A DNA stretch of 64,000 bases, from assembly GCA_900074885.1 (NCBI GenBank), contig FJUW01000017.1, positions 131,933 through 195,932 of the forward strand. Direction: 5' to 3'. Below are positions 13,031 through 55,260 of this stretch, one piece after another; the stretch's first letter is position 1, and every line of letters starts with the position of its first letter. The position numbers and the translations under genes are program-made. The stretch is from Rhynchosporium graminicola. Its lineage: Eukaryota; Ascomycota; Leotiomycetes; Helotiales; Ploettnerulaceae. The notes beneath the pieces were generated by a model. It was not told the origin of the DNA, did no database searches, and worked only from the letters and a program-made list of their open reading frames with translations.

Positions 13031-14973
13031 TCATTGTCTATATTCCGCTCCGCAATCGCCCATGTCCGAAAACACGTCCGTTGCTTTACACTTATCCAAG
13101 ACTTTCTGAATCGTTTCTTGGTATTCCCCATCGAGTTTGAATTTAAACACTTCTAAATTCTCATCCACATGTTGACTGATGCCCATCCTAGCTCCGATGA
13201 TCACAGCACCAACATATTCATGGTCAAGGACCCATCTAATGGCTGTTGTCGATATCGAGGTATTATGCTTTTTGCCAATAACGGACAATGTTGTGAGAAG
13301 TTCTTGGAACAATTCCCAGCCTCCCCAGATCTCAATCATCTCGAAATACTTTCTGTGACTCGGAGTCATGTTCTTATCGAAAAGATTTGGCGCGGGCACA
13401 TTCAGCCATTTCTCGGCAAGAAATCCGCCACACTGTAGTGAGGTCAATATTTTGACGAAAAAAAGTGCGAGACAGAACTTACGAGGGATCCATATGTCAA
13501 GAGCTTTACGTTGTGCTTCCTACAGCTAGCCGCCATCTTGAAAATTGGCCGAAGATCAATCAGAGAAAACTGCAGCAAATTCAGCACTTTCGGAGGCAAC
13601 ATTGTCAAGTCCTTGCTTGCCTACCTGAACTTGATTTGAGACTACTTTGACACCTGCTTCTACCAGCTCATCCATCCTCTGCGTGTCAAAATTACACAAT
13701 CCTAGATTCTGGACTCTAGGATGATCTGCGATCAACTTCGCTGCTTGGATATATTGAAGATCGTTGTACTTGGAAGTCAGTTCATCAGCTCGCGACATTG
13801 CGTCTCATGGATTACTAACATCCTGCCAATGAAATTGGACGAGCTCAATCCTATCAGCCTCGACGTTCGCGGCCCGCTGGTTCACATTAGAGTCGATAAA
13901 CTCCGGAGTAACCACCACCGATCCAAATACACATATTTTTGTTGCGCAGGCAATCTCATTGCCGTCAGGTTGTGCGGAACGAAATTGTCCCTGAGCTAAT
14001 ATCAGTACCCTTTCTGGTGACTATGCTGCTTCAGGAAAGACTCACAAAGGTTACTTCTGCATCACCGTAGTGGTCGGCCATGTCTAAGAGCTTGCTTAAC
14101 ACCCATTTGAGCTGTATTCTGGGACGATATCTTACCATAGGCAGTGAAGCCAGCATCGACATGTTTTCTGAAATCCGTGTTGATCTGCGCTCTGGACGCT
14201 GTACCCCAAGCTGGACTAGAAAATTGCCACAAACCTGCGAAAATCCTAGGAACCTCTAAGCTGCCCAGGTGCACAGTCTCAGAGATATGGTTCCTTGGTA
14301 CCAATGGTTGTGATATGACCTGCTTCTTCTGCGGCAGGGCAATCTCACCACCATCGAACTCTGCCAGCCTGTTCATACCTCTTGCAAAAGCAAATCTCAA
14401 TTGTTCCTTTGCTTGCAATGATGACCATGATCGCAATGTTTCTTTGAGGCTCTTGATGATATCTTGCTCGGACGCAGCCATGGCTCTCACCCCGGACACG
14501 GTAAGCAGCTCTTTCTGAACTGCTGTGACAGCTTGTACAATATCTCCATCGATAGATGCAAGGAAATTTAAAAGTTGATCGTCAGGCACAATTTTTTTGC
14601 TGAAATTAGACGTGAACTCTTGAAGTACATCCGTCAAAGTACGAATGCTCTCAAATCCAAACCCACAGCCCATGAGACAACGAACCCTGCTTTGTGTCTC
14701 AAAAAACGATTCAGTTGGTACCAGGCTAGTGCTTGACTTCGAAAATAATTTAGATGGAGCTGATAGTAGTGGCTTTGTTTCCGAAAGATATTTTGCTGCG
14801 AGATCGTGGAAATGCAATGTCAAGTTCTGTTCGAATCCGAGAAGTCCTCGAACGATACTTCGCAAAGCATCCGGAGGTAAATTGGCTATGACGGTATCAG
14901 TCATCATGTTAACGTGCGCCGCTTTTGCCTTTCCGTTCGAAACATGGTCGGCTACGGGATTTAGGACTGCCAT
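13031..14973 (-). CDS. Aldo/keto reductase with an N-terminal extension
   Basis: Six exons on the minus strand: 14973-14136, 14083-14046, 13990-13820, 13768-13625, 13569-13483 and 13432-13031. All phases agree, giving 559 residues. Residues 1 to about 226 form an extra helical domain (LPPDALRSIVRGLLGFEQ near the start) of unknown role. From about 227 (VHLGSLEVPRIFAGLWQFSS) the AKR barrel follows. The catalytic Asp and Tyr lie in YDMADHYGDAE, the Lys in CATKICVF and the His in VQFHWQD. RVQNLGLCNFDTQRM and VVSNQVQFSLID are family motifs, and the C-terminus has AIRWVLDHEYVGAVIIGARM, the NADP-binding region. It is probably a cytosolic NADPH-dependent carbonyl reductase. The substrate cannot be read from sequence. 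Confidence 0.92.
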
Positions 14974-15500: not shown

Positions 15501-17403
15501 ATGAATTGTTCTGGTGAAAGATCGTTCGTGCAAGATCCAGGGCTCGTTCCACGGGATTCGTCTTCTCGAGACTTGGAGGAGGGAACCCATGAGAAAGAGC
15601 AGCTCGAACGTAACATGGGAGCTCGACACATCAACATGATTGCTATAGACGGAATGATCGTTCGTTTATTTGAAAGTCACATATTAATTATACGACTTGC
15701 TAAATCCAGGTGAGGGCACAGGTTTTTTCTTGAGCTCTGGAAAGACGATCGCCAAAGCCGGGCCAGTCGGTGCGCTTCTTGCCCATTTCTTTATGGGATT
15801 TATAACTGCCGGTGTCTCTTATGCGACTGGAGAAACCACAGCATTCATGCTGGCGGATTCGTTCGTCATGCTACTGCTTTTATCGAGCCAGCACTGGGTG
15901 CGGCTACTGGATGGGACTTCTGGTACACGATGGCCATATGTGTTCCTGCTGAATTGAGCGCTGCCGCTACCTTGATCCAGTTTTGGAATACTTCTGTCAC
16001 TCCGGCTGTCTAGATCACTATAGTTCTAAATGTGATCGCATGTTTGAATTTCTGTGGAGCTCGATTATATGGAGAGGCAAGATCAAACTCTCCTACATAG
16101 TATCGCAGTTCGCTTACAAGACCTACAAGTCATCAGAAGTCGTCTTTGCGCCTATGCAGATTGCTCTGATCCTTGGTCTCATTCTTGCAGAACTGGCTGT
16201 CGATCTCGGGGGTGGACCGCCTGGTGACAGGATAGAGTTTAGATACTGGCGCAATCAAGGTGCTTCTAACAGCTACTTGGTCGACGGAAGTACTGGCAAA
16301 TTTCCTGGCATTCTGGCATTCTGGTCTTCTCTAATCAGTGCAGCATTTAGCTACGGAAACGTTCAAGTTGTTGCGCTTTCTGGAACCGAGTTTCAGAACC
16401 CTCGCGGGAATATCCCGCAAGCTACGAAGAGTAACTTCTACCGAGTTTCCTTCTTCTAAGTGCTCAGCATCTTTTTCGTGGGCTTGCTTGTGTAAGTCCA
16501 TCATGTAGCATCCGAACATAATACTAATCAGTAGTAGGCCCTACAACTTAGACAAGCTTCAGACCTCATCAGGAACTGCTCAGCAATCCCCTTTTGTAAT
16601 TGCTTTCCAAGAAGCAGGTATCAGAGCATTGCCATCAATCATCAGTGCCGTCGTTACGACTTCAGATATTAATAGTGGCTCAGCCTGTATTTTCGTCGCC
16701 TCGCGAACACTATACGGGCTGAGTGCCGATGGACACGCGCCCAAGATATTCCTTCAGTACCACCGATGGGGAAATCCATTCTAGACTGTGGCATTCAGTT
16801 TGCTTCCGTGTCCTCTAGTCCTACCTGCCGTCAGCAATAATTCCTCAGTTGTTTTCGGGTGGTTCCTCAATATCACAACTTTCGCTGGTTTGATCGATTG
16901 GGTCGTGATCCAAGTCACTTACCTCAAGTTCGTTTATGCGTTGAGAAACCAGGGGATCTCTCGTGATGGTAATCATGATGCCCATTATCTGTTGCCGTAA
17001 ATATGACTGACTGTGCTTGCAGAATTGCCATACAAAAGTCCCTTCCAACCTTACACAGCATGAAAAACTCTCTTGCTAGTCTTCCTCGTCGTACTATTCT
17101 CTGGATTCAACGTCTTCTTCCCAGGCAACTATTCCGCATCTAGTTTTTGAATTTGCTCATTGAATATCGCAAATTTTGCTGGTATGTTCTCTCCTCACTT
17201 TACCCTGCCTGTGCTGTGGCTCATCTTTGCCAGTGCTGTATATTGTTTTCAAAATTCTTTTAAAGTCAAAAATCGTACCCATGGAAGTGATCAAATTTGT
17301 ACAGAGCTAGAGGCCAATCAGGGAATGGAAGGAAGCTGAGGCTTGGGAAGCTGAGAAGTCGCAATTTAATCTGGGGAAGAAGATCTGGAACAAGGTCTTT
17401 TGA
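15501..17403 (+). pseudogene. Dead DIP5-like amino-acid permease
   Basis: Fragments in changing frames follow the order of a full-length fungal amino-acid permease. An N-terminal GARHINMIAI lies near 15620. FFLSSGKTIAKAGPVGALLA follows a normal intron that ends near 15711. Later pieces are FRYWRN, SAAFSYGNVQVVALSGTE, SACIFVASRTLYGLSADGHA, SVVFGWFLNITTFAGLIDWV and a C-terminal GKKIWNK. Lesions include a frameshift near 15868, a TAG at 16011 where a Trp is expected, a TAA at 16457, a TAG at 16782 in a WGNPF context and a TGA near 17061. The intact family imports acidic and other amino acids across the plasma membrane through about 12 membrane helices. This copy cannot make a full protein. Confidence 0.88.
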
Positions 17404-20268: not shown

Positions 20269-20949
20269 CTACTTCCATGCATGAGCAACTAGAAGGGAGT
20301 CTGGATGGGCTTCGCCACCAGCATTTTTCTTCCATCCTTCTTCAGCATCCAGGTCACTAGGGACGACTTCGCTACGAGCTTTCTTCTCCTTCCATTCATG
20401 AGCCTCTAGATAGAAGTCTGGTTGGGCTTCGCCACCAGCATTCTTCTTCCATCCCTCTTCAGCATCCAGGTCGCCTGGGACGACTTCGCTACGAGCTTTC
20501 TTCTCCTTCCATTCATGAGCCTCTAGATAGAAGTCTGGTTGGGCTTCGCCACCAGCATTCTTCTTCCACTCCTCTTCAGCATCCAGGTCACCTGGGACGA
20601 CTTCGCTACGAGCTTTCTTCTCCTTCCATTCATAAGCAGCTAGAATGGAGTCTGGATGGGCTTCGCCATCGACGTTCTTCCCCTTCCCTTCAATAGAGGC
20701 CACATCGGCACCTGGAACGACTTCGCTACGAACTTTCACGTCACCAGGTTTCCTATTGATATCAGATGTTTGTTAGACAGAATGACGCCAAACGTTCGAA
20801 AGAATCTTTCATGTTCTTTCTTCTAATTTTGATTTCGTAATTCAGGAACGGAACGATGAGATGAGAGACAAAACTTACTCCGAGACATATTCCAAGGGAG
20901 CAGCTGTAACAGCTCCGAACAAGACAGTGAACACAAGTGCGTACTTCAT
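20269..20949 (-). CDS. Secreted tandem-repeat protein, candidate ribosomal-peptide precursor
   Basis: Two exons on the minus strand, 20949-20879 and 20752-20269, give 184 residues. The signal peptide (residues 1-16, MKYALVFTVLFGAVTA) is followed by four tandem units at 32-71, 72-110, 111-149 and 150-184. Each of the middle units is 39 residues, starts RSEVVPGDLDAEE, contains WKKNAGGEAQPDFYLEAHEW and ends KEKKA. Basic clusters (WKK and KEKKAR) recur once per unit and could be processing sites, although no canonical KR is present. The Tyr-containing PDFYLEAHEW segment is the most plausible core. The nearest gene, at 23675, is UstYa-like, which fits a dikaritin-type precursor. The alternative is a Kex2-processed repeat protein (KEP) without modification. 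The protein lacks the WC...GQPC core of alpha-type pheromones. Confidence 0.8.
20310..20665. repeat. 117-base in-frame tandem repeat
   Basis: These are direct repeats inside the secreted repeat protein. For example, GCCACCAGCATT recurs at about 20,314, 20,431 and 20,548, a period of 117 bases (39 codons). The copies are almost identical at the DNA level, so they are recently duplicated or homogenised. The outer units are the most diverged. Confidence 0.85.
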
Positions 20950-23674
20950 TGTGATAGTTGATGTGTATCGCGGAGGGTGAAATTTAAGTGAGGTGAAGAC
21001 CAATCTGGTAATATCTCAACACTTTGTAAGTGAGTAAGCTGAGGCTGATATTTCTAGACTTCATCAAATTACGGAGGAATATGATGAGTTTTATAGATCG
21101 GAGAGTAGATGAAGCACAAAAGTACGTGCCCGATGTCAGTTCCCACTCTTAGGTTTTCATTTTGTACAGCATCTGTATGTAGCGAAGGTTTCAGTCAGTC
21201 CTCTCTCGCCATTCCTGCCAGTGATGATGCATAATCCAATCGAACTTCCTCTTTGGGAACCCTAGATCTGTTACCTCCGATTAGCCAACATTGCATTTGA
21301 ATCGGTTCTGAACAGCTCTGTCGATGTAAACCATACTCTCGATCTATGGGTGACAACAGTGGCGAATGCCCTCAATAGGTGGCGATTAAATTCACTTTCC
21401 AACCTGCTTGAGAAACTCTCATATCGGGCAGCTGTTCTTTTCGCAATTGGTTTCACTTTCGGGTAAATGCCAGCTCATACTTCAGTGTCATCTTTCAACT
21501 CGATTTAGACTTTACGGTCGATTTTGGACGGAATAACGTATCTTTATACTGTGTGTACTATGCGGCGCAGGGTTTCGGGCAAGAGAACTTAGCCTCAATT
21601 TGGTTGATGTTACTTTCGCGCGGCGGTGTATAAGTAAATGGAAGGTTACACTTTCGTAGTGAAAGAAAGCTCCGTAAAAGATAAGATAAATCAAAGCGTG
21701 TCGCTCTGTACCTACCCCTCACTTGCCGTAATCGTGCAGTAAACTCCTACCAGCCCTCCCTCAATTACAGTAGATGGCTCGATGGTAAGGTATTAAAGTA
21801 AAGTATATGTCGCCCCACTAGTCCTGCCACTAAGCCTTTCTGAAAACGCCCGGTGGCACGTACAGAACTTCATATCAAGCATACCAGTCAGGGAAGTGGC
21901 TATTAGATAGGGCCTTTCAGGTGGGGAAGCTATGACTTGCGCTGCACGCCGGGACAACGGTCAAGTGTTGTCACTGGCCATTTCACTAGAAGGACTCATC
22001 CCTTGTAATTGCCTCATCCTGATCCTGAGTGGTACTCTGTACTCCAGACGTTTCTATCAAGTGTAACCTTCTGTTTTAGGACTCGAAACTTGCCGAGTGT
22101 GAGAAAGACATTTGGTAGATATGCGGTCACGCGATCAGGCTATGCATACTTTGCAGATAAGAAGCTTCAAGTCATGCAGATTTAACGTGTACGAAGTACT
22201 GTGCGGTGTGACTAGAATATTCCACAACGCCCTGGGTTGGCAACCAATAACCCAACCCGATTTCTTCTTTCTCTTTTATCCGCTGCGCTGCCATCAGTGT
22301 TGCATTTTCGGGCCGGGACTAGCTTTAAAGTACTACTCTACAAACTATTCTGTATCTCTATCCGAGGGGAAGATCGCAAAAATATTACAGAATAATACTG
22401 AGGTATCGCTTCACAGTCGTATACCCATTTGATGATTTTTACATCGTTGATAACTTGGTCTAGCCCGAGAAGAATTGCTTGAGATTCGAAGCCCCTTTCT
22501 ATAGAATTTAGTCTTTCTATTTGCTACTATTGAGTGACTTGACGAGTACATAGACTAATGCATCTCAGATGGCAGCGCAGCGGATAAAAAGTACAGTCAG
22601 GGTTGTCTAGCACGGACAGAAAAAGTAAGATTTTTCTACCATGTACTTAGTACAGGGGGGAAAAAATGTACAATTCTAGGCCGTGCACTTTAGAAGCTTC
22701 ATGACTGCTTTACCCAGTAAACTATGTAGTATTGCTTTATTATTGGGTAGCTCCCTATGTAATGACTCCCTCCCTGTTGTAGAAACTTGTAGAATAACGC
22801 ACAGATTCTACTTTGCACTTAACCTACCCCTTGTACCATGTACTTCCGTACGACGTAGAGTTATCATCGATGGTGTGAAGGAGGTGAAAGCTTAACAAGA
22901 TCAACATACTACAGTATGTTAGCGAGGTACTTCCGTGGTACTGTAAGATACTATTTCCTCCCCGGTAAAGAGGTTGCCGAGGATAAAAATGGGCTGAAGC
23001 CCTGTTTCCTCTGCGTTGAGTGGCTAAAAGCCCTAGTAGAGCCTCGAGCACGAGCCAAAATATGATCTTTTATAATAGCAAGGGTGGCTATAGATGTTTC
23101 GAGAGGTGTTCAAAGCCCTGCTTACAGTAAAAAAAAGCTACCTTATTGGATACACCCCCCTGGAAGCTACCCACACGAGGCACCATTTCCATCCTCGGGA
23201 ACCTCTATAACGGGGGGGGGATAGTGCGGTACTAACCCCCTCGGTTTAAACGTTAAAAGCTGAGCTGTGGTATGGGTAAAGGATTTAACGTTTAATCTAG
23301 GAGGGGAGAGAGAGGGGGGGATATCTTCGACGATTTTCGAGTAAGTGAAAGCTTGATAAGACTGTCATGCTGTATCGGTGTAAAGTGGTAATGAGGGGTA
23401 GATAACGAATTATAGCGTAGTAAAGTATCCTTTGATACTCGTGAGGCACGATGCGAGGGTATACCCGACATTCGATACATCCTACACATCGAGATCTGAT
23501 ATTTTGGCGATGGCGGAATGAAGCATGTTAAGACGTGGTACCCGAAATCTTGAAGATCACATCATCCCCTTCCCACCTCGTTCATATGTACGGCAAACGG
23601 CCTTTTTAACAAAACGGGATTGAAAATATCTTGAGCAGCTTCTCTCAACTTCACCTCGTTTTGTTTTTTGGAAT
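20950..23674. other. 2.7-kb divergent region with repeat elements
   Basis: This is the region between the repeat-protein gene (minus) and the UstYa-like gene (plus). It should hold both promoters. It also contains a 22-base inverted repeat pair (22274/22568) and G-rich runs near 23210-23320. No coding frame is credible. Confidence 0.45.
22274..22589. repeat. Short inverted-repeat element (MITE-like)
   Basis: The 22-base arms 22274-22295 (TTTTATCCGCTGCGCTGCCA then TC) and 22568-22589 are perfect reverse complements. Similarity continues weakly inward (TGCATT on both sides). The enclosed 272 bases hold no ORF of note. It looks like a miniature inverted-repeat element in the promoter region of the UstYa-like gene. 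Confidence 0.6.
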
Positions 23675-25045
23675 ATGGCCAGTGCTAACTCTTCATTTTC
23701 TCCTCTGGAGGAAGAAGACCGTTCCAGTTCCTCCACACTCTTAGGCGACGACGAAGAAAAAGACGAGACTGAATACGAATACAACCCTAAGCTACCTCAC
23801 AAGTTCTCTAAAACATTCAACAAAACCTACCAATTTCTCATTGCTTTCTTGGTGCTTCTACCCTGGGCTTTGCTTCCTTTTATCTACAAGATAGGAGAAT
23901 ATCAAGGAGCCAAAGTGCTGCCCAAATTACCAACTCATGGTACGTATTACTGCCCAGGACTGGGTCTTCTCTTGCTAATCCCATCTTCTGCGATTAGGTA
24001 TAACAGATAGTGCCGTAAAGTATCAGCTCAAGATTCTTGACGACGAATTCTACACTACCGAGCCGGAGAATCTGAAATACAAAGGCGTGCCTAGGAAAGA
24101 GTTAGACGATGCATGGAATGCACTGATCGAGAGTGAGTGATATTCTATGGAGCAAAAAGAACCAATACCGATGTTAGAAGACTAGTGGCTAATAATGATC
24201 AGATTTAAACATACGAGTTCATCCCGCCGAGGCCAAAGCCGCTGGCTGGGAGTCCGTAGAACTTGCAGACGGCTCCGGCGATATGTTCGCATTACCAGCA
24301 GTCTTCCATAACCTCCACTGCCTTGTCAGTCAACTTTTTTGCTTTTTATTTTAAAGACGTCACGTTGTGTGGTGTTATGGATAGCTAATCAATGATATCG
24401 CAGTACGCAATCCGCCGCGCCATGTTTCCAAACGTATACATCGATGACAAAGACGCCATTCCACCAGGACCTAATCAAATCAACATACACACTGACCACT
24501 GTATCGACACGTGAGTCACCTCTCGCAGTTCATGAAATAGAAAACATAGGAAAAATATGACGAAACTGATCAAACACTTTACCAGTATCCGGCAAGCCCT
24601 GATGTGCCACGGCGATATGTCGCTTTACTATTTCTACGTAAGTAACTCCACCAACCACTCTACCTCTTTCTGAACTCACCCTCAAACCTTCCATAGTCAG
24701 GCCTGCGCTGACCCATCCAACATCTAGTGGCCCACAAGTGAAGGCCGTAGTACACATGCATACCCCCGACACGTAGGGCACAAAGAACACATGTGTGTCG
24801 ACTGGGACAATCTGCAGTCCGAAGCTCACAAGCGGCACTTCTCTATCTCAGGAAAAAAGAAGCTGCTAGTGAATCCTATCTACCCGGATGCGTCTCTGAA
24901 ACATGTGGATCCCTCGTGGCGGATGAATTATAGCGTCTATGATGGGATGAACATAAAAGGCCCGCAACTTTATGAGGGTCTGGAGGATCTCGAAGAGTTG
25001 AAGCGGTTGAAGAATCTTCCGGCTTCGGGTGGTGTGCAAAAGTAG
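23675..25045 (+). CDS. UstYa-family oxidase-like protein (formerly DUF3328)
   Basis: Six exons, 23675-23939, 23998-24132, 24203-24324, 24404-24510, 24586-24637 and 24728-25045, give 332 residues with all phases consistent. An N-terminal acidic cytosolic tail is followed by one membrane helix at about residues 48-70 (FLIAFLVLLPWALLPFIY). The two family-defining motifs are present: HNLHC (169-173) and HTDHC (203-207). They are followed by RQALMCHGD and by a conserved tail with GHKEHMCVDW. UstYa proteins act in the secretory pathway and catalyse oxidative cyclisation of ribosomally made peptides (ustiloxin, phomopsin, asperipin); others modify polyketides or NRPS products. The nearest upstream gene encodes a secreted repeat protein, a plausible substrate. 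The protein is longer than typical UstYa, mainly at both ends. Confidence 0.92.
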
Positions 25046-26926: not shown

Positions 26927-29519
26927 CTACTCGATACATCCACAATCCTCTTTCCTCCCATTAATCCTCCATCCCACCTCCAGCGCCGGGCACCCCCACG
27001 CAATCTCAGCACTACTACACTGCAACAAAACACCCCACAACCGCTCGATCGTCAAACCCAAATAAGGCTTAGCTAAACTATCAGGACTGCCATACACAGC
27101 GCCTTTCTTCCACCTCCCCTTTCCCCCTTCCCCGGTCAGCATAACAGGCATCTTCTCGCGTTTATGCGCCCACGCATTTTCCAAATTCTTGTCAACGAGT
27201 CCGTCGTATAACATCTGCCACACATCTTGCTTCGTGGCTCGAATACGAGCGGCTGAAGCTGCGAAGTTGTTGCCGTAGGTTAGGAGAACGGATTCGCATG
27301 CTGTGGTGCCCGGGCGAGCGGCGCTGAACATCGAGGGGACGAGATGGAAGGAGTCTTCCCAGCCGTGGGAATCGGTACATTGGCCGCAATAGCAGGATTC
27401 GGATTCTCCTAGATTTAAGAATCCGGTCTTGGGTACTGCGTCGGGAAGAGGAAAGCCCATGATGACAAAGTAGTCTGCGAGACGGTTCCTATATAACTGG
27501 ACAGTGGAGTTGGAGATTGTGGGGGTGGCAGTGGAGAGGAAGACTGTTTGGACGGTCATGGTTGACCAGCTGGAGAGGATGTGGTGGAGGAATGTCGCTG
27601 TGACGCCGCCTGTGTTATCCAAGATTTGGATGGAGAAGTCGCCTTGGAATTCTCCTTTGATCTTTTTTGCCGCTTCTTCTGTCATTTCGATGCTAGAGTC
27701 TTTGCTGTAGACGATTATACGTGGGTTGTAAAATTTGATGAAGTTGTGGCTGGTAAACATCGCGATTAAGTAGGAGAGCGAAGCGATTGAATCGCCTTCC
27801 GAGTGTGCGATTACGACATCGATGGAGCGGAATCGAGGGGATCCATACACCGTGTCGAGGGTTGGTGTGGTAGGTCCGAGCCAGGTTTTGGTGTCACGGC
27901 TGTAGGCCAGTGTGTCTACCCAAAATATCATGTTGCAACTTATGATAATTCCGAAAACCACTGTGGTTGTGATGATGAAGACGATGAGCTGCCATGGCTC
28001 GGGACGAAGAGGCATTTGTCTTCGTCGGAACAGCCTGGTACAGAAATTCATGAGGCGAGGCGGGTAGTATGCGATGTGCTTTGGACCGACACAAACAATG
28101 TAGATGAGCGTGAAGGGGATGACTTGCGTCCAATCAACGAAATTCTTCTCCTGACCGAAGACACCAACGATGATGATCCAAAAGCCGGCTTGGAGCGTGC
28201 TAGCAATAGCATCTGTAGCCTTCTCGGTTGGTTCCTCCAAGGCACCACCCACATGTACATCGGATATAAATGGATGCGCGCTGTTCATCGAGGCGATGAA
28301 AAGGAGATGCATGAGAACACCGGGTGCAAGATTTAAGAGCTTATATTCCAGGCCCCAGGATGTGAATGCATAGTGAGCTGCAACATAATTTTCGTGCTTG
28401 GTGGCAGCTACCCAGGATATGATGATGGGAGCAATTCCCTGCAGCAAGTAGTAATGGAGAGGTGTATCTAATCTGAACGAAGTACCAGTTCCTTTCGATT
28501 CAAATTGGGGACCGATCTTTAAAATGACTTTAGAGAGACTGAATAGGGCGAACCCTACAAAGGCGAAAACCGTACTTCTTTGGTTGAGCCTGTAGTCGAA
28601 TGCTATTGGTGGTATAGAGAATGCAAAGACAAAAATGACCTTGTGAGCTCTTTTGAGTGATGCACTTTGATCTCGGGGTAGAAGACAGAAGAGATATGCT
28701 AGACGGAACAAGAAGCTGTCGAATACATATGTTGTGATCTGAACATACGTTAGTATTCATACAATACCATTTCATTGAGAACCTACAGGCAGCATAACTA
28801 GGATTGGTAAATTCGGACAATTTTGTAAGGCAAAAGCTCCGCAAAGAGCTGCCAGACCCGCAACTGACGAAGCGAGCAGTGTCCTAGCAATGAAGAAGGT
28901 GGTCGCAAACATTGAATAGCCTGCGGCCACATCTTTCAAGTTCGTCGCTTTCGCCGCTCTCAGATTGAAATTTTTCAAATGTCTCACAACAACGAAGAAG
29001 GCAACCATGCTCCACGCTACCAGTTGTATGCTTAGCACGAGGAAGAATGCTGCTTTGGGTCAGAATCATGAGTAGATCTTTCAAGCCAGTATAGGACAAT
29101 GAATCCGGTTCTGGGGCTGATGCACTCACGATATGCTTCAAAAACGTTAGCATGTGTACATCTATGCATAAACGACTCCCCATAAAACACACAGGATGGG
29201 GAGAAAACAACTCACGAAAACTCCCCCTCAAAAGCCTCCTCCCGAGCAGCGTACTCATAGTCATGAGAACCACCCAAATAGTCCCTTTCGTACTCCTACT
29301 CAAGCCCCTCTGTGGCCCTTGGTCTGACTCGCCATTCTCGCTCTCACTCTCGCTTTCATTCTCATACTCATCTTCAATTCCTTTCTCAGGTTGATCTTCG
29401 TTGTCGCCCCTTGCACTTGCTCGCCCACTAACGCTCTCAAAAGACCGCCGATCATTCAGCAAGATCTCCACTTCTTCCTTGCCCTCCTGCGATTGAGGAC
29501 GCCAACCTGCGTCCTGCAT
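26927..29519 (-). CDS. Polytopic membrane protein fused to a DUF3431 domain
   Basis: Three exons on the minus strand, 29519-29216, 29052-28787 and 28738-26927, give 793 residues. The N-terminus is acidic and disordered (a run of E/S/N repeats). About eight to ten membrane helices follow to roughly residue 450 (for example FIARTLLASSVAGLAALCG and LLQGIAPIIISWVAA). The C-terminal part matches DUF3431: DVVIAHSEGD, IVYSKD, LDNTGGVTATFLHHIL, a Cys-rich CYCGQC segment and TIERLWGVLLQC. DUF3431 is a fungal domain often likened to glycosyltransferases, function unproven. The middle junction (residue 102) is the least certain. The long first intron might hide a mini-exon. The combination suggests a membrane-anchored enzyme facing the secretory lumen or cell surface. 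Confidence 0.78.
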
Positions 29520-41879: not shown

Positions 41880-42275
41880 CAAAGGAGAGCCTGCGGTGCT
41901 AAAGTTGCCAATGCTAGGAACAGGGACCGCTATGGATTTGTTACTTCGCCCTCGCATGCCACGGCAAATCAAAAAATCAAAAACTCCAGCCAACTCCGAA
42001 ACAAATGAAAGCGCAGAAGGCAAAAAAATCAAATCGCAGAACTCCGAACAAAAGAGAGCCGGCGGCGCTAAAGTTGCCAATGCTAGGAACAGGGACCGCT
42101 ATGGATTTGTTACTTCGCCCTCGCATACCGCGGCAAAGCAAATACAAATCGCAGAACTCCGAACAAAAGAGAGCCGGCGGCGCTAAAGTTGCCAATGCTA
42201 GGAACAGGGACCGCTATGGATTTGTTACTTCGCCCTCGCATACCGCGGCAAAGCAAATACAAATCGCACACACAA
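41880..42275. repeat. Tandem repeat, 115-base unit, three copies
   Basis: A block containing TAAAGTTGCCAATGCTAGGA, then an AACAGGGACCGCTATGGATT segment and CTTCGCCCTCGCAT, occurs at about 41,900, 42,069 and 42,184. The last two copies are spaced 115 bases and nearly identical. The first is 169 bases upstream, separated by an A-rich spacer, and more diverged. The last copy ends about 30 bases beyond the stop codon of the 106-residue protein on the minus strand. Confidence 0.85.
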
Positions 42276-47905: not shown

Positions 47906-48675
47906 CTATCTAACCAGTAGCCCGAAAAACGGAAACACTTCCACCTCCACACCCGTAGTAATCAGACCCGCATCCAAACGATCCACCATCCTCGAGTAGC
48001 AAGCACTCTGTCAGTTCCAGCATCTCCGTATCATCGAGAGTTAAAAAATACTCACAGGCCAAGTGTACTGGCCCCCAATTGGGCAGCTATGTCAAAATAT
48101 CGCATCAGTATCGAACTCGTGATCCACACATGCGCTCAAATTCTGACTGATGAAACTTACTTTAGCTGAGTATAGATTTTGTCAAATTGCGACTCGATGT
48201 GTGAACCCAGAGTACAGTTGCCATTGAAATTCCCGCAATAAAACTCCGCGTTACATCCGCCGGCTGTTCGCTGCGTGTAACTGCAATGGTAAGCACCATT
48301 GGTGAACCTATTTATCACTTGCAAGTGCGCGTCTGGATGAACGAAGTGTTAGCGAAATGCCGCTCTGAACGTTGCCAAGTTTTCTGAAGCAGGAAACTGG
48401 CGATGTACATGAGGGAAAAAAATATCCTCACGTACTGTGTGCGACTGAAGTTGAGATAGCCTGTGTATTTTATGCACTGACTGCGCTTGCCGAGTAGACT
48501 GCGAGTTTCGATGGCATTTGCGTGGGAGTTGGCGTCATGTTCGAAGACTTGAACTCCTTCGGGTATATCGGCACGGGGAATGAAGTTCGGGAGTACGGTC
48601 GGAGCGTCTGTAGGTATAGCTGTAGTAGGCATGGCAAAGAGAGCAAATCCCAGGGCGGCAAGAAATCTGTACCAT
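47906..48675 (-). CDS. Secreted cysteine-containing protein with an out-of-frame start
   Basis: Four exons on the minus strand from 48632: 48632-48436, 48307-48161, 48086-48056 and 48007-47906. They give 158 residues with all phases consistent. A propeptide-like part ends in LLGKR (residue 50), a Kex2-type site. A mature part with seven Cys follows (C53 in SQC, then YHC, GGC, FYC, GNC, LNC and AC). It includes ERTAGG-like and NGNCTLGSHIE segments and ends in a hydrophobic FPFFGLLVR. Upstream of the Met at 48632 the same frame encodes a hydrophobic FLAALGFALFAMPTTA signal-peptide-like stretch. The only nearby ATG with good context (48675) is one base out of frame. It may be a frameshifted gene, a sequencing error, or an unrecognised first exon. 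Confidence 0.68.
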
Positions 48676-50531
48676 GGTGACAGAAAGATATTCAGGTTCT
48701 TGGTTGAGAAATTTACGGTAGTGCTGGTTTATAATTTTTCTGGTTCTGAAAGTGGCGATGAGCCTCCTTATTTAATATTCTATGCATGACGGTTTCAGTT
48801 TCCATATCATAGGCTGGAAAGCACCCGCTTTCAGCTTATCAAAAGAGTCTTCCTGCCTGCGGCCAGGTGGGAAATATTTGCTTCATAGCCCAGGGCTTTA
48901 CTCAAATAATTCGCATGATATACCCCACTGTCCAAGATACCAAGACACAACACTAGCGCCGTTCAACTAGCATCTGATTATTCTTTTGATACTTCGCCTG
49001 ATTCCTTGTACACCGTTTCGGAATCGCTCAGATCTATCAACGGTTGCTAATATATCCATAATAAGCAGATCACTCACGATGGTCTTTAAAGGGTAAAACA
49101 AACATAAGCCCCGAATTGGCGCCAAGTGAGAATATCAGATGTCGCAGAAAGTCTCTATACAAAGTGCGCCAAAACTGTAGCGGGCGTGCAAAAAAGATGG
49201 AAAATGGATCCACAGGCTCACGAATAAGGACATGCCTAGTCATCTAGTCCTGAGGTGACTGCAGATAGCCTATGAGGAAATCTTGAGATTCGAGTCACCC
49301 CCTGTAAGTAGCGACACAGGCACCAAGAGCTCGGTTAAGCTGACTGCCTGACTGCTTGTTGACTTTCCGTGACAACCAAACCAAAGAAATCAAAACATAA
49401 AAATGTCCTTTCTTCTTCTCTGTGTCGATGTAGATTTCTCTACGCCGAGATTCCAATTTAAAGAATTTCGTTGACTTATCTCGCGATAAGCAGATAATGA
49501 AGTATGATTCAGTTTACACGGAAGACGTTGTTTACTCAGCACAGGGGCTCGCTTAACCTGCATGTCATCCATCATCTTTTGGTGGTGGCCTAGATACAAA
49601 TTTTAGCAACGGACCCCATGGAATCCCTAAGTCCCCGAAAAACTTGACTATGACCCACGAAAGTTTCTGAAGGGGCCAAAGTCTTTGGCGATGGGATATC
49701 TCCCTATTGATTGAAAAAGTCTTCGGCGCAGAACCACGTCGTTGTGAAATGCAACATTCCGAGTCCTGAAATAATCCAAGTCCGCGGAAAGGTGTTTTGC
49801 CAATACTGCAACGAAAAGTAAATAATGTTATCGTCCTTTTCGAACTGCTTGATTGCGACTTGTAGTATGACTCTCAATTATATGGGCTATTGGGCACAAT
49901 CCAATTCGGCCGCTGATGAATAGTGGCAAGCAGGGATAATAAGTCCACAGCTGTCGATTTGCGTCGCTATCATACCTACACGAGCCTATGGATTGAACTC
50001 GGCCGATCACCATTATTACCTGGAAATTTGCAGCACTTGGTATCTTGCAAGAATTAATATACTTTCGAAAAATTCAAAGGGATTCTCGAAACGATCCAAT
50101 ACGCATTGACGAAAGAGATAAGTAGCGCACTATACAAAACAGCGGTCACACCTTATCGTGGGTCTATTATGATAGAGACGCTGTTTAATTTGACGATCTT
50201 TAATTTGAGGACAGGTTGGCAGAGTACTTAGTGCTGAAGAAGAATCCGTTCTCCTACAACATGACCACACTCAGAACGACTCTATCTCTCGGGATTCTTG
50301 GGACAGGCAGCCATGTCAGAGAATTATGCTTTAATCATGAATTCGTTGCTATTGTAAACTCCCCTCCCTCTCTAATCCGGAAAACCCCATCTTGATCAGC
50401 GATAATACCAAGTTTGCGTCTCCAGATACACCAGCAAGCAAGCATGAAGTCAGTTCCACGAGTCTTATACATGTGTTGACACTGCACAATGACATTACGC
50501 AGTCTATCAGCTGGCCATAGAGTAGTAACAA
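48676..50531. other. Intergenic stretch, nothing recognised
   Basis: This 1.9-kb, AT-rich stretch has frames no longer than about 70 residues on both strands and no splice-joined model or RNA gene. Confidence 0.4.
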
Positions 50532-53505: not shown

Positions 53506-55260
53506 ATGGTTTCTTCATTCACAAAGAAGACCGTTGCGGTGAGCTCTGTCGCAACTGCCTTGATCGTGTTCCAAGCTCCGCATCTACTCCCTGAGAGACT
53601 GTCTCGAGCTGTTGTTCGATTTCTGATTTACGACGGAGTACTTGCTATTTTCTACACATTATTCATTTACCCATTCCTCGTCGATCCGCTGCGACATCTC
53701 CCTGGTCCCAAAGTAAGATCCTCATTCAACTTCGGGCGTTGAGCTTGCCCCCTCGTGTTAATGTATGTCTCTAGAGCTACAACTTTCTCTATGGAAATGG
53801 TCTAGCCTCGTTTTCGAAACCTCCTGGTCAGGAAATTCTCAACTGGGTCAACGATCCCAAAATCAAAACGCCTGAAGGGATAATTCGCTTCCGTGGCTTC
53901 TTCAACAGATCAACTCTCGTTCCCACCTCCGTCGAAGCACTCAAGAGTGTTCTTTCGGATCACACCTACGACTTCATCAAGCCCAAAGAAGTATCCAGTT
54001 TTTTAACCCTGATCATTGGTGATGGATTAATTCTGACGGAAGGTGATATTCACAAATTCCAGCGGAAAAACACGTTACCTGCCTTTCAGCTAAAGAGCTT
54101 AAAAGAGCTATATCCCGTGTTCTGGAGCAAAACCAGAGGATTGGTGGAGGGCATCGAGGCGGACATCGATCATCTTACCAACAAGGAAACAAATAAGGAG
54201 CCGGTCATCGAATTCGGGGAATGGGCTACACGAGTCACTTTAGACATCATTGGTCTTGCGGGCATGGGTAGAGACTTCAGTGCAGTCAAGAACGCCGATG
54301 ATGAATTGGTACAGGCATATACCATCTTGTTAGATCCGACGATTGAGAAGGCGATTTATTTTGCAACGAATATCTTAGGGCCGCAGAGTCTGGTGCAAAA
54401 GCTGCCATGGAAACAAAACGCCGACCTGAAGCGGGTAACTGGGCAGTTGAAGAGTTATTGCTTGAAGAACGTGAGAGAAAAGAGAGAGGAGTTCAAGAAG
54501 ACTGGGAAACTTGGAAAGGATATTCTGAGTTTACTGATCGAATCGAACAATTTCAACGATCAGGAGTTGGTTGACCAAATGTTGACATTTTTGGCTGCAG
54601 GGTGAGCTCTGATGTTCTTTTGTCTGCTTAGGTCGCTGGTTGACATGAAATTATAGACACGAGACAACTTCTAGCGCAATGACCTGGGCTGTTTGGCTAT
54701 TGGCAACTCATCCTGATTGGCAGCATCAGCTCCGCGAAGAAGTCCGCGGTGCCCTCCCATCAGTACATTCTGACGAGATGCCCACCGTGGCACAGATTGA
54801 AGACCTGCCTATCCTCAACGCTGTCGTCAATGAAACTCTCCGTCTCTACCCTACAGTTCCAATGACAGTTCGAAAATCCATCCGCGATACCCACATTGGA
54901 AACGTTCCTATCCCAGATGGAACACGAGTCTTGCTCGTTCCTTGGGCCATCAATCGATCTACGCATCTCTGGGGAGAAGACTCCGAGGTGTTCAAGCCTG
55001 AGAGATGGCTAGCTGAGGGATGTGCGAATACGGGCGGGGCGAAGAGCAATTATGCTCAAATTACCTTTCTTCATGGACCGAGAAGTTGCATCGGGATGGG
55101 ATTCTCCAAGGCGGAGTTCAAGTGTTTATTGGCGGGTATGGTGGGAGCCTTTGACTTGAAGATGGCTGATCCGAATGAGAAAGTTTGGCCTGCTGGTGTC
55201 ATTACCACGAAGCCTGCGCATGGTATGCATTTGCATATCAAGAAATTGCAGGGTTGGTAG
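53506..55260 (+). CDS. Cytochrome P450 monooxygenase
   Basis: Three exons, 53506-53712, 53775-54601 and 54657-55260, give 545 residues. The N-terminal membrane anchor (about 12-65) is followed by the Pro-rich hinge LRHLPGPK, which ends exactly at the first intron. The I-helix motif AGHETTS spans the second intron. ETLRLYPTVP (K-helix), VLLVPWAIN and FKPERW follow. The heme-binding loop is FLHGPRSCIG with Cys489 as the thiolate ligand. It is probably a microsomal enzyme using NADPH-P450 reductase. The family number and substrate are not readable by eye. No polyketide, NRPS or terpene gene lies nearby, so a role in detoxification or fatty-acid and xenobiotic oxidation is as likely as secondary metabolism. 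Confidence 0.95.

What the first reader, a model, noticed from the sequence alone, without database searches (positions are those of the whole stretch)
20269..25045. Candidate ribosomal-peptide (dikaritin-type) locus: repeat precursor next to a UstYa-family gene
A secreted 184-residue protein with four 39-residue repeats lies beside a UstYa-family gene with both HxxHC motifs, and the two diverge from one 2.7-kb region. In known fungal pathways (ustiloxin, phomopsin, asperipin) exactly this pair, a secreted repeat precursor and UstYa-type oxidases, makes cyclic peptides. The repeats hold one aromatic segment (PDFYLEAHEW, with Tyr and Trp) and basic clusters per unit. Canonical KR sites are absent, so the cleavage rule would be unusual. 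No tyrosinase, methyltransferase or transporter was seen nearby, so the pathway would be minimal or split.
Basis: partly seen in the sequence, partly recalled or inferred. Interest (0 to 1): 0.85.

Follow-up and report, generated by a model that had tools for sequence, protein, structure and literature searches.

The report
Two-gene fungal ribosomal-peptide cassette
In the barley scald fungus, a gene for a secreted-looking protein made of repeated short peptides sits next to a gene for a peptide-modifying oxidase, and related fungi carry similar genes, so the pair probably makes small modified peptides ending in tryptophan.

Summary
An intact 184-aa repeat protein with a signal-like start (20269-20949, minus) and an intact 332-aa UstYa-family protein with both HxxHC motifs (23675-25045, plus) diverge across 2,725 bp. 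The genome is Rhynchosporium commune (graminicola) UK7. The precursor has homologs in two Cadophora and one Leptodophora. In one of these three, Cadophora sp. MPI-SDFR-AT-0126, the precursor and the UstYa ortholog are listed on contigs of identical length (1,398,625 b), so almost certainly one scaffold. In four precursors the 16 cores that precede the KE[KR]K[AT]R linker or the protein end (6 distinct hexapeptides) all read [LV]-x-[AG]-[HYN]-x-W. In three of the four, Arg occurs only at unit borders. The UniRef name 'Mating factor alpha' does not fit: a separate alpha-factor gene exists. Three other UstYa loci of this genome (15 of 17 examined, 8 partly) also sit beside repeat proteins. Corrections: about 0.8 kb of the gap is dispersed repeats, an amino-acid permease gene lies 3.3 kb away, and the deposited 145-aa protein lacks one unit, probably a mis-called intron. 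This is a new member of the known KEP/UstYa (dikaritin-like) kind. Product, cross-link and expression are untested.

The parts
20879..20949 (-). repeat precursor, exon 1: signal-peptide-like exon (MKYALVFTVLFGAVTAAP...)
   Evidence: gene model, GT..AG intron 20753-20878; hydropathy peak at residue 4
20269..20752 (-). repeat precursor, exon 2: four repeat units and stop
   Evidence: tandem repeat period 117
20608..20727 (-). unit 1 (residues 33-72), degenerate first half, core LAAYEW then KEKKAR
20491..20607 (-). unit 2 (residues 73-111), DLDAEEEW-KK and LEAHEW-KEKKAR
20374..20490 (-). unit 3 (residues 112-150); differs from unit 2 by 1 synonymous and 1 non-synonymous codon of 39
20272..20373 (-). 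unit 4 (residues 151-184), ends LVAHAWK-stop
20475..20591 (-). 117-nt GT..AG stretch, exactly one unit long, whose omission gives the deposited 145-aa protein RCO7_07889
20950..23674 (.). 2,725-bp intergenic region between the divergent genes
22274..22589 (.). MITE-like dispersed repeat with 33-nt inverted ends (91%); at least 9 other copies scored
22641..22842 (.). second dispersed repeat, about 200 bp; at least 24 other copies scored
22945..23225 (.). third dispersed repeat, up to 281 bp; at least 6 other copies scored
23675..23939 (+). UstYa-family gene, exon 1 (acidic N-terminus and hydrophobic segment, residues 55-73)
23998..24132 (+). UstYa-family gene, exon 2
24203..24324 (+). UstYa-family gene, exon 3; first HxxHC motif (HNLHC) at 24307-24321
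24404..24510 (+). UstYa-family gene, exon 4; second HxxHC motif (HTDHC) at 24488-24502
24586..24637 (+). UstYa-family gene, exon 5
24728..25045 (+). UstYa-family gene, exon 6 and stop

Best explanation
The two genes form a small ribosomal-peptide cassette. The repeat protein enters the secretory pathway (inferred from its N-terminus), is cut in the Golgi by a kexin-type protease after the Arg that closes each unit (K-K-[AT]-R) and possibly at KK, and basic residues are trimmed. This releases several copies of short peptides whose conserved end is [LV]-x-[AG]-[HYN]-x-Trp. The UstYa-family oxidase, probably membrane-anchored in the same compartment, oxidises these cores, most simply by joining the invariant Trp (or the Tyr/His two residues before it) to a nearby side chain such as the Leu/Val five residues before Trp. 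Inferred: secretion, cleavage, oxidation, cross-link, function.
For: Pfam UstYa E 1.2e-35, both HxxHC motifs. Precursor homologs P0002, P0016 (Cadophora) and P0017 (Leptodophora) with the same signal-like start, units and linker; P0002 in turn finds only this gene in the genome. P0016 and UstYa ortholog P0007, same isolate, both listed on a contig of 1,398,625 b. In the four precursors the 16 cores before the KE-linker or the protein end (6 distinct hexapeptides) all have W, [LV] at W-5, [AG] at W-3 and [YHN] at W-2; the last core ends at W or WK then stop in 4 of 4; Arg lies only at unit borders in 3 of 4 precursors. Three other UstYa loci of the genome (15 of 17 examined, 8 only in part) have signal-bearing repeat proteins within about 2 kb; of these only C18 meets the KEP definition in full, since C53 has no dibasic site and C106 only two units. 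In the literature 22% of 7878 KEPs have a UstYa-family gene nearby, with the maximum at the adjacent position (PMC7329392; abstract and section 7 read).
Against: No expression, cleavage or product data. Shared contig length is seen in 1 of 3 homolog-bearing isolates only: for C. gregata the precursor P0002 and the UstYa P0004 come from different strain records with different contig lengths, and no UstYa hit is listed on the contig length of Leptodophora P0017. The deposited Cadophora UstYa P0007 lacks the second HxxHC motif, from a gene-model error or real decay. UstYa orthologs exist in Leptodontidium, Drepanopeziza and Diplocarpon/Marssonina, but no precursor homolog was found there, though short intron-bearing genes are often not annotated. 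KK and KKAR are not the best kexin sites: Arg at P1 with Lys/Arg at P2 is the prototype (PMC8528282, passages). The second core type of R. commune (DLDAEEGW) breaks the pattern. UstYa-family enzymes also serve non-RiPP pathways (PMC12048977, passages). The distance between the two genes in Cadophora is unknown. The dispersed repeats weaken the shared-promoter argument.
Confidence: 0.74

Rival explanations
1. The repeat protein is processed into linear, unmodified secreted peptides (signal or effector-like), and the UstYa enzyme serves another substrate.
For: Most KEPs have no UstYa gene nearby (78% of 7878, PMC7329392). Trp content is about the same in KEPs with and without such neighbours (20.5% and 24.5%). 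Several UstYa orthologs have no detected precursor homolog.
Against: Adjacency here, contigs of the same length in one Cadophora, and three further UstYa-repeat protein pairs in the same genome. By my arithmetic one repeat gene falls within 3 kb of one of about 18 UstYa loci in 55.3 Mb by chance in roughly 0.2-0.3% of cases.
Confidence: 0.17
2. The repeat protein is never cut up: it is a secreted structural or wall-associated repeat protein.
For: No KR sites; charged repetitive sequence; no released peptide shown.
Against: Arg only at unit borders in 3 of 4 precursors, a conserved K-K-[AT]-R linker (KRKAR in part of C. gregata), and the last core ending exactly at the stop codon in both Cadophora proteins are precursor features.
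Confidence: 0.06
3. It is the alpha-factor mating pheromone precursor, as the UniRef name of RCO7_07889 says.
For: Name given by a source; repeat precursor with a signal-like start and Trp.
Against: No Cys and no GQ/PG pair inside the Trp-ended cores (sequence). A separate gene with eight CGHPGQPC copies is at C60:332719-333201, matching the RCGHPGQPCG repeat reported for Ploettnerulaceae, Drepanopezizaceae and Mollisiaceae (PMC10569646, passages; that Rhynchosporium belongs to the first is recalled). Alpha-factor genes almost never neighbour UstYa genes (PMC7329392 section 8).
Confidence: 0.02

Closest known systems
Kex2-processed repeat proteins (KEPs) accompanied by a DUF3328/UstYa gene (Umemura 2020, PMC7329392)
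   Same: Signal-bearing repeat precursor with at least three repeats separated by dibasic (KK) sites, UstYa gene as direct neighbour.
   Different: No KR or RR; a conserved Arg after KK-[AT]; cores end in Trp, not built round Tyr. Whether this gene is in the survey's Table S2 was not checked (supplements not available).
Asperipin-2a pathway (single UstYa gene)
   Same: A single UstYa-family gene next to a repeat precursor (PMC7329392 section 7; PMC12048977 passages).
   Different: Asperipin is linked through internal Tyr side chains (PMC9233826, passages); here Trp is the invariant aromatic residue. The flanking aldo/keto reductase and amino-acid permease genes here are of unknown relevance.
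Victorin
   Same: C-terminal aromatic residue and an internal Leu: victorin is closed between a C-terminal Phe and an internal Leu (PMC9233826, passages).
   Different: Trp in place of Phe; victorin is chlorinated and heavily tailored; no tailoring genes recognised here; product unknown.
C18 locus of the same genome (tyrosinase, two UstYa genes, precursor with DIALGDYYE units)
   Same: Signal-like exon, intron, repeat exon, neighbouring UstYa genes.
   Different: Tyr-Tyr units, KR/RR/KK sites and tyrosinase matches about 5 kb from the precursor: the fuller dikaritin arrangement.

Membership tests
Kex2-processed repeat protein (definition in PMC7329392 Methods) | signal peptide | tested here: inconclusive
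   Hydrophobic N-terminus ending TAA-P, own exon; SignalP not available
Kex2-processed repeat protein (definition in PMC7329392 Methods) | at least 3 tandem repeats of at least 8 aa, none over 100 aa | tested here: met
   Four units of 40, 39, 39, 34 aa
Kex2-processed repeat protein (definition in PMC7329392 Methods) | Kex2 sites (KR, KK, RK or RR) between repeats | tested here: met
   Six KK sites, no KR or RR; the survey's definition accepts KK
Dikaritin (UstYa-type RiPP; definitions in PMC12048977 passages) | UstYa/DUF3328 protein with two HxxHC motifs | tested here: met
Dikaritin (UstYa-type RiPP; definitions in PMC12048977 passages) | repeat precursor linked to the UstYa gene | tested here: met
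Dikaritin (UstYa-type RiPP; definitions in PMC12048977 passages) | tyrosinase, methyltransferase, several UstYa proteins, transporter or peptidase in the cluster (older definition; functional clusters lacking some are known) | tested here: inconclusive
   Nearest tyrosinase match on the contig about 309 kb away; one UstYa gene only on C71; an amino-acid permease 3.3 kb away; no methyltransferase or peptidase among 26 window open frames put to Pfam, which is not the whole window
Dikaritin (UstYa-type RiPP; definitions in PMC12048977 passages) | side-chain cross-linked cyclic product | not testable with these tools
   needs mass spectrometry or NMR
Alpha-factor pheromone precursor (description in PMC10569646 passages) | mature 9-14-residue repeat, mostly with GQ or PG turn, preceded by STE13 XA/XP and followed by KR, RR or KK; family repeat RCGHPGQPCG | tested here: not met
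   No Cys and no CGHPGQPC-type repeat here; that repeat lies at C60, eight copies. Pfam MF_alpha matches nothing in this genome, so that model is uninformative here

The most novel reading that the evidence does not exclude
A Helotialean class of UstYa-modified ribosomal peptides in which Trp, not Tyr, is the constant cross-linking residue: cores [LV]-x-[AG]-[HYN]-x-W, cut at K-K-[AT]-R by an Arg-directed kexin step, and finished by a single oxidase with no tyrosinase. That would be a fungal counterpart to the Trp-linked peptides of plant BURP-domain copper enzymes (the Trp link there is recalled).
Probability: 0.3. Interest if true: 0.66.

Novelty: new member of a known kind. Interest (0 to 1): 0.45.

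Why it matters
If the cassette works as inferred, a major barley pathogen and related fungi make an undescribed family of small secreted peptides from two genes. That is a simple system for asking what a lone UstYa-type oxidase does, and whether it can use Trp. It also shows how precursor genes of this kind can be mis-annotated in public data: here probably one unit removed as an intron, and the name of a mating pheromone.

Tried and rejected
Alpha-factor identity was considered because of the UniRef name and rejected.

A copy-number polymorphism between isolates was considered for the 145-aa protein RCO7_07889 and rejected. Its contig has the same length as this one (642370), and omission of a 117-nt GT..AG stretch of this very sequence gives that protein. 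A real alternative intron is not excluded.

A UstYa tree against characterised enzymes was not made: no reference sequences were at hand, and the paralogs in the genome were read only exon by exon. NCBIfam gave no match for the UstYa protein or P0016 and only far sub-cut-off ones for P0002. The Pfam hits of the repeat proteins are below cut-off and look like chance. The bacterial promoter scan is meaningless in a fungus and is not used.

Detector hits not counted as precursors, by eye: L003, L047, L048 and three other window frames plus the opposite strand of the window repeat; L042 at 353 and 8651, L053, the other frames of L042, L046 and L033, and an 8-residue minisatellite in L055 open in three frames. 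The C106 pair was found only at the laxer setting.

Literature: the listings seen were 25 of 387 papers, 4 of 4, 20 of 36, 15 of 158 (with RCO7_07889 and its two neighbouring tags: 0 occurrences in those listed), 15 of 5,769, 8 of 24, 10 of 47 and 8 of 35. None of the listed titles is about this locus. The R. commune genome paper PMC5118889 has 0 occurrences of RiPP or ustiloxin in its main text (12 of 35 passages seen). Supplements were not readable.
Full report
What is there. The window lies in a 55.3-Mb fungal genome on contig C71 of 642,370 bases. The deposited protein RCO7_07889 of Rhynchosporium graminicola (R. commune) is recorded on a contig of the same length, so I take this as the UK7 reference assembly (55.59 Mb in PMC5118889, passages; that the RCO7 tags are UK7's is recalled). 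The repeat gene runs on the minus strand: exon 1 20949-20879, a 126-nt intron, exon 2 20752-20269; 184 aa. It has four units of 40, 39, 39 and 34 residues. Lag-39 identity is 0.97, against at most 0.45 in 1000 shuffles. The UstYa-family gene has six exons between 23675 and 25045, with GT..AG introns, and gives 332 aa without a broken frame, identical to WAI453_002468 of the same species. Pfam UstYa matches with E 1.2e-35. The motifs HNLHC (169) and HTDHC (203) are present, and the strongest hydrophobic segment is at residues 55-73.

Is the pair more than chance? The repeat protein and its WKEKKAR-coding motif match nowhere else in the genome, and the best-scoring UstYa paralog is 35% identical over residues 110-257. 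The genome has 17 other UstYa loci by my grouping of the 31 matches; that search works exon by exon and did not list the window's own gene, so the number is a lower bound. If one repeat gene fell at random, it would lie within 3 kb of one of about 18 loci in roughly 0.2-0.3% of cases (my arithmetic). I looked for repeat precursors round 15 of the 17 other loci, 7 with wide flanks and 8 only in part. Three had one within about 2 kb: C18:415192-415557 with four DIALGDYYE-type units and KR, KK and RR sites; C53:61197-61430 with RLSY units joined by single Arg and an EAAPEPAPEP spacer, no dibasic site, ending RLSY-stop; C106:10682-10918 with only two AEDPGAMMQWGGFD units, found at the laxer setting. 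Only C18 meets the KEP definition in full. Each has a signal-peptide-like exon just before the repeat exon (by eye), as here. The C18 locus also has tyrosinase matches at 409189-410020. As a positive control the detector also found the alpha-factor gene (L033). Random DNA of this genome was not run as a background.

Relatives. A search of 5.8 billion proteins with the repeat protein gave two hits, RCO7_07889 and a Cadophora gregata protein P0002 (E 1.9e-3). P0002 in turn finds only this gene in the genome and leads to P0016 (Cadophora sp. MPI-SDFR-AT-0126) and P0017 (Leptodophora). All share the MKY signal-like start and the units. The UstYa protein has orthologs at 62-69% in Cadophora, Leptodontidium and Drepanopeziza, with more distant ones beyond. 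P0016 and the UstYa ortholog P0007 come from the same isolate and both are listed on a contig of 1,398,625 bases. Two scaffolds of one assembly with that same length would be a strange accident, so I take them as one scaffold; the distance between the genes is unknown. For the other two precursors no such match was seen: C. gregata P0002 (2,690,854) and UstYa P0004 (1,940,444) are from different strain records, and no UstYa hit lists P0017's contig length. P0007 as deposited lacks the second HxxHC motif. Of the 13 UstYa proteins found (P0003, the window's own, to P0015), 8 have both motifs, 2 the first only and 3 neither. The gaps in the alignment look like gene models that skip or misread exons there, but I could not check their DNA.

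Anatomy of the precursor. Lining up the Trp residues of the four precursors gives 19 segments. Three are the R. commune DLDAEE[EG]W type followed by KK. The other 16, picked by what follows them (KE, a single Lys and stop, or stop), comprise 6 distinct hexapeptides; all have Leu or Val five residues before Trp, Ala or Gly three before, and Tyr, His or Asn two before. The last core ends at W (2 of 4) or WK (2 of 4). In the R. commune, Cadophora sp. and Leptodophora precursors every Arg lies at a unit border: 4 of 4, 4 of 4 and 3 of 3. In C. gregata 3 of 8 do not: two are inside KERKAR and one is in the leader. This points to cutting after the border Arg, even though KR is absent from the R. commune protein. 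Kexins are described as having an invariant Arg at P1 and preferring Lys/Arg at P2 (PMC8528282, passages), so a KKAR site is unusual; KK alone is accepted in the KEP definition (PMC7329392 Methods).

What it is not. UniRef calls RCO7_07889 'Mating factor alpha'. The protein has no Cys, and the genome has another gene with eight CGHPGQPC copies at C60:332719-333201, plus one lone match on C103; this is the repeat reported for related families (PMC10569646, passages). Pfam MF_alpha finds nothing in the genome, not even that gene, so the Pfam model is no test here.

The deposited protein has 145 aa; omitting a 117-nt GT..AG stretch, exactly one unit, from this sequence gives it letter for letter, so the published protein probably has one unit spliced away by the gene finder. 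The 2.7-kb divergent region holds three dispersed repeats of about 316, 200 and 280 bp, the first with 33-nt inverted ends, with at least 9, 24 and 6 other scored copies (40 of 98 candidates scored), so its length says little about shared control. The nearest genes are an amino-acid permease (15688-16997), an aldo/keto reductase (13034-13519), and on the other side a gene with a weak DUF3431 match (26930-28756, below cut-off). A P450 lies about 28 kb away (53775-55257). I saw no sign that these belong to the cassette, but only 26 window open frames were put to Pfam.

How it most likely works and how sure I am. The layout is that of Kex2-processed repeat proteins with a UstYa neighbour: in a survey of 1461 fungal strains, 22% of 7878 KEPs had such a neighbour, with the maximum at the adjacent position (PMC7329392 abstract and section 7). 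By analogy with ustiloxin, asperipin and victorin (PMC9233826 passages), the precursor is cut in the Golgi and the UstYa enzyme oxidises the cores. Trp is the only aromatic residue in every core, and in the 16 cores Leu/Val is always five residues before it; victorin, closed between a C-terminal Phe and an internal Leu, is the nearest pattern I met. I give 0.74 to 'precursor plus its oxidase' and about 0.3 to a Trp-centred cross-link. Nothing here shows expression, cleavage or a product, and UstYa enzymes also serve other pathways (PMC12048977 passages).

Novelty. It is a new member of a known kind, with unusual sites and Trp-ended cores. No title in the parts of eight literature listings that I saw concerns this locus, but the survey's supplementary table, where it might be listed, could not be read.

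Noticed in passing
G000:C18:409189-415557 (L006, L056): A fuller dikaritin-like cluster in the same genome: tyrosinase matches, two UstYa matches and a precursor with DIALGDYYE-type units and KR/RR/KK sites.
   Followed up: partly
G000:C53:56005-63538 (L045, L046): Four UstYa matches round a precursor with RLSY units joined by single Arg and EAAPEPAPEP spacers, ending RLSY-stop.
   Followed up: partly
G000:C106:8655-10918 (L041, L042): UstYa gene 1.7 kb from a secreted-looking protein with two AEDPGAMMQWGGFD units.
   Followed up: partly
G000:C60:332719-333201 and C103:216939-216962: Alpha-factor gene with eight CGHPGQPC copies that Pfam MF_alpha misses, and one lone matching site on C103.
   Followed up: no
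window 22274-22589, 22641-22842, 22945-23225: Three dispersed repeats in a row between the two genes, the first MITE-like; at least 9, 24 and 6 other copies, most at 72-89% identity.
   Followed up: partly
window 20475-20591: The repeat units carry GT and AG at positions that let a gene finder, or the cell, splice out exactly one unit in frame.
   Followed up: partly
window 42019-42268: 115-bp tandem repeat, 2.2 copies, 97% matches.
   Followed up: no
window 48318-48728: Open frame with a hydrophobic stretch followed later by KR, possibly a small secreted protein; no Pfam match at E 0.001.
   Followed up: no
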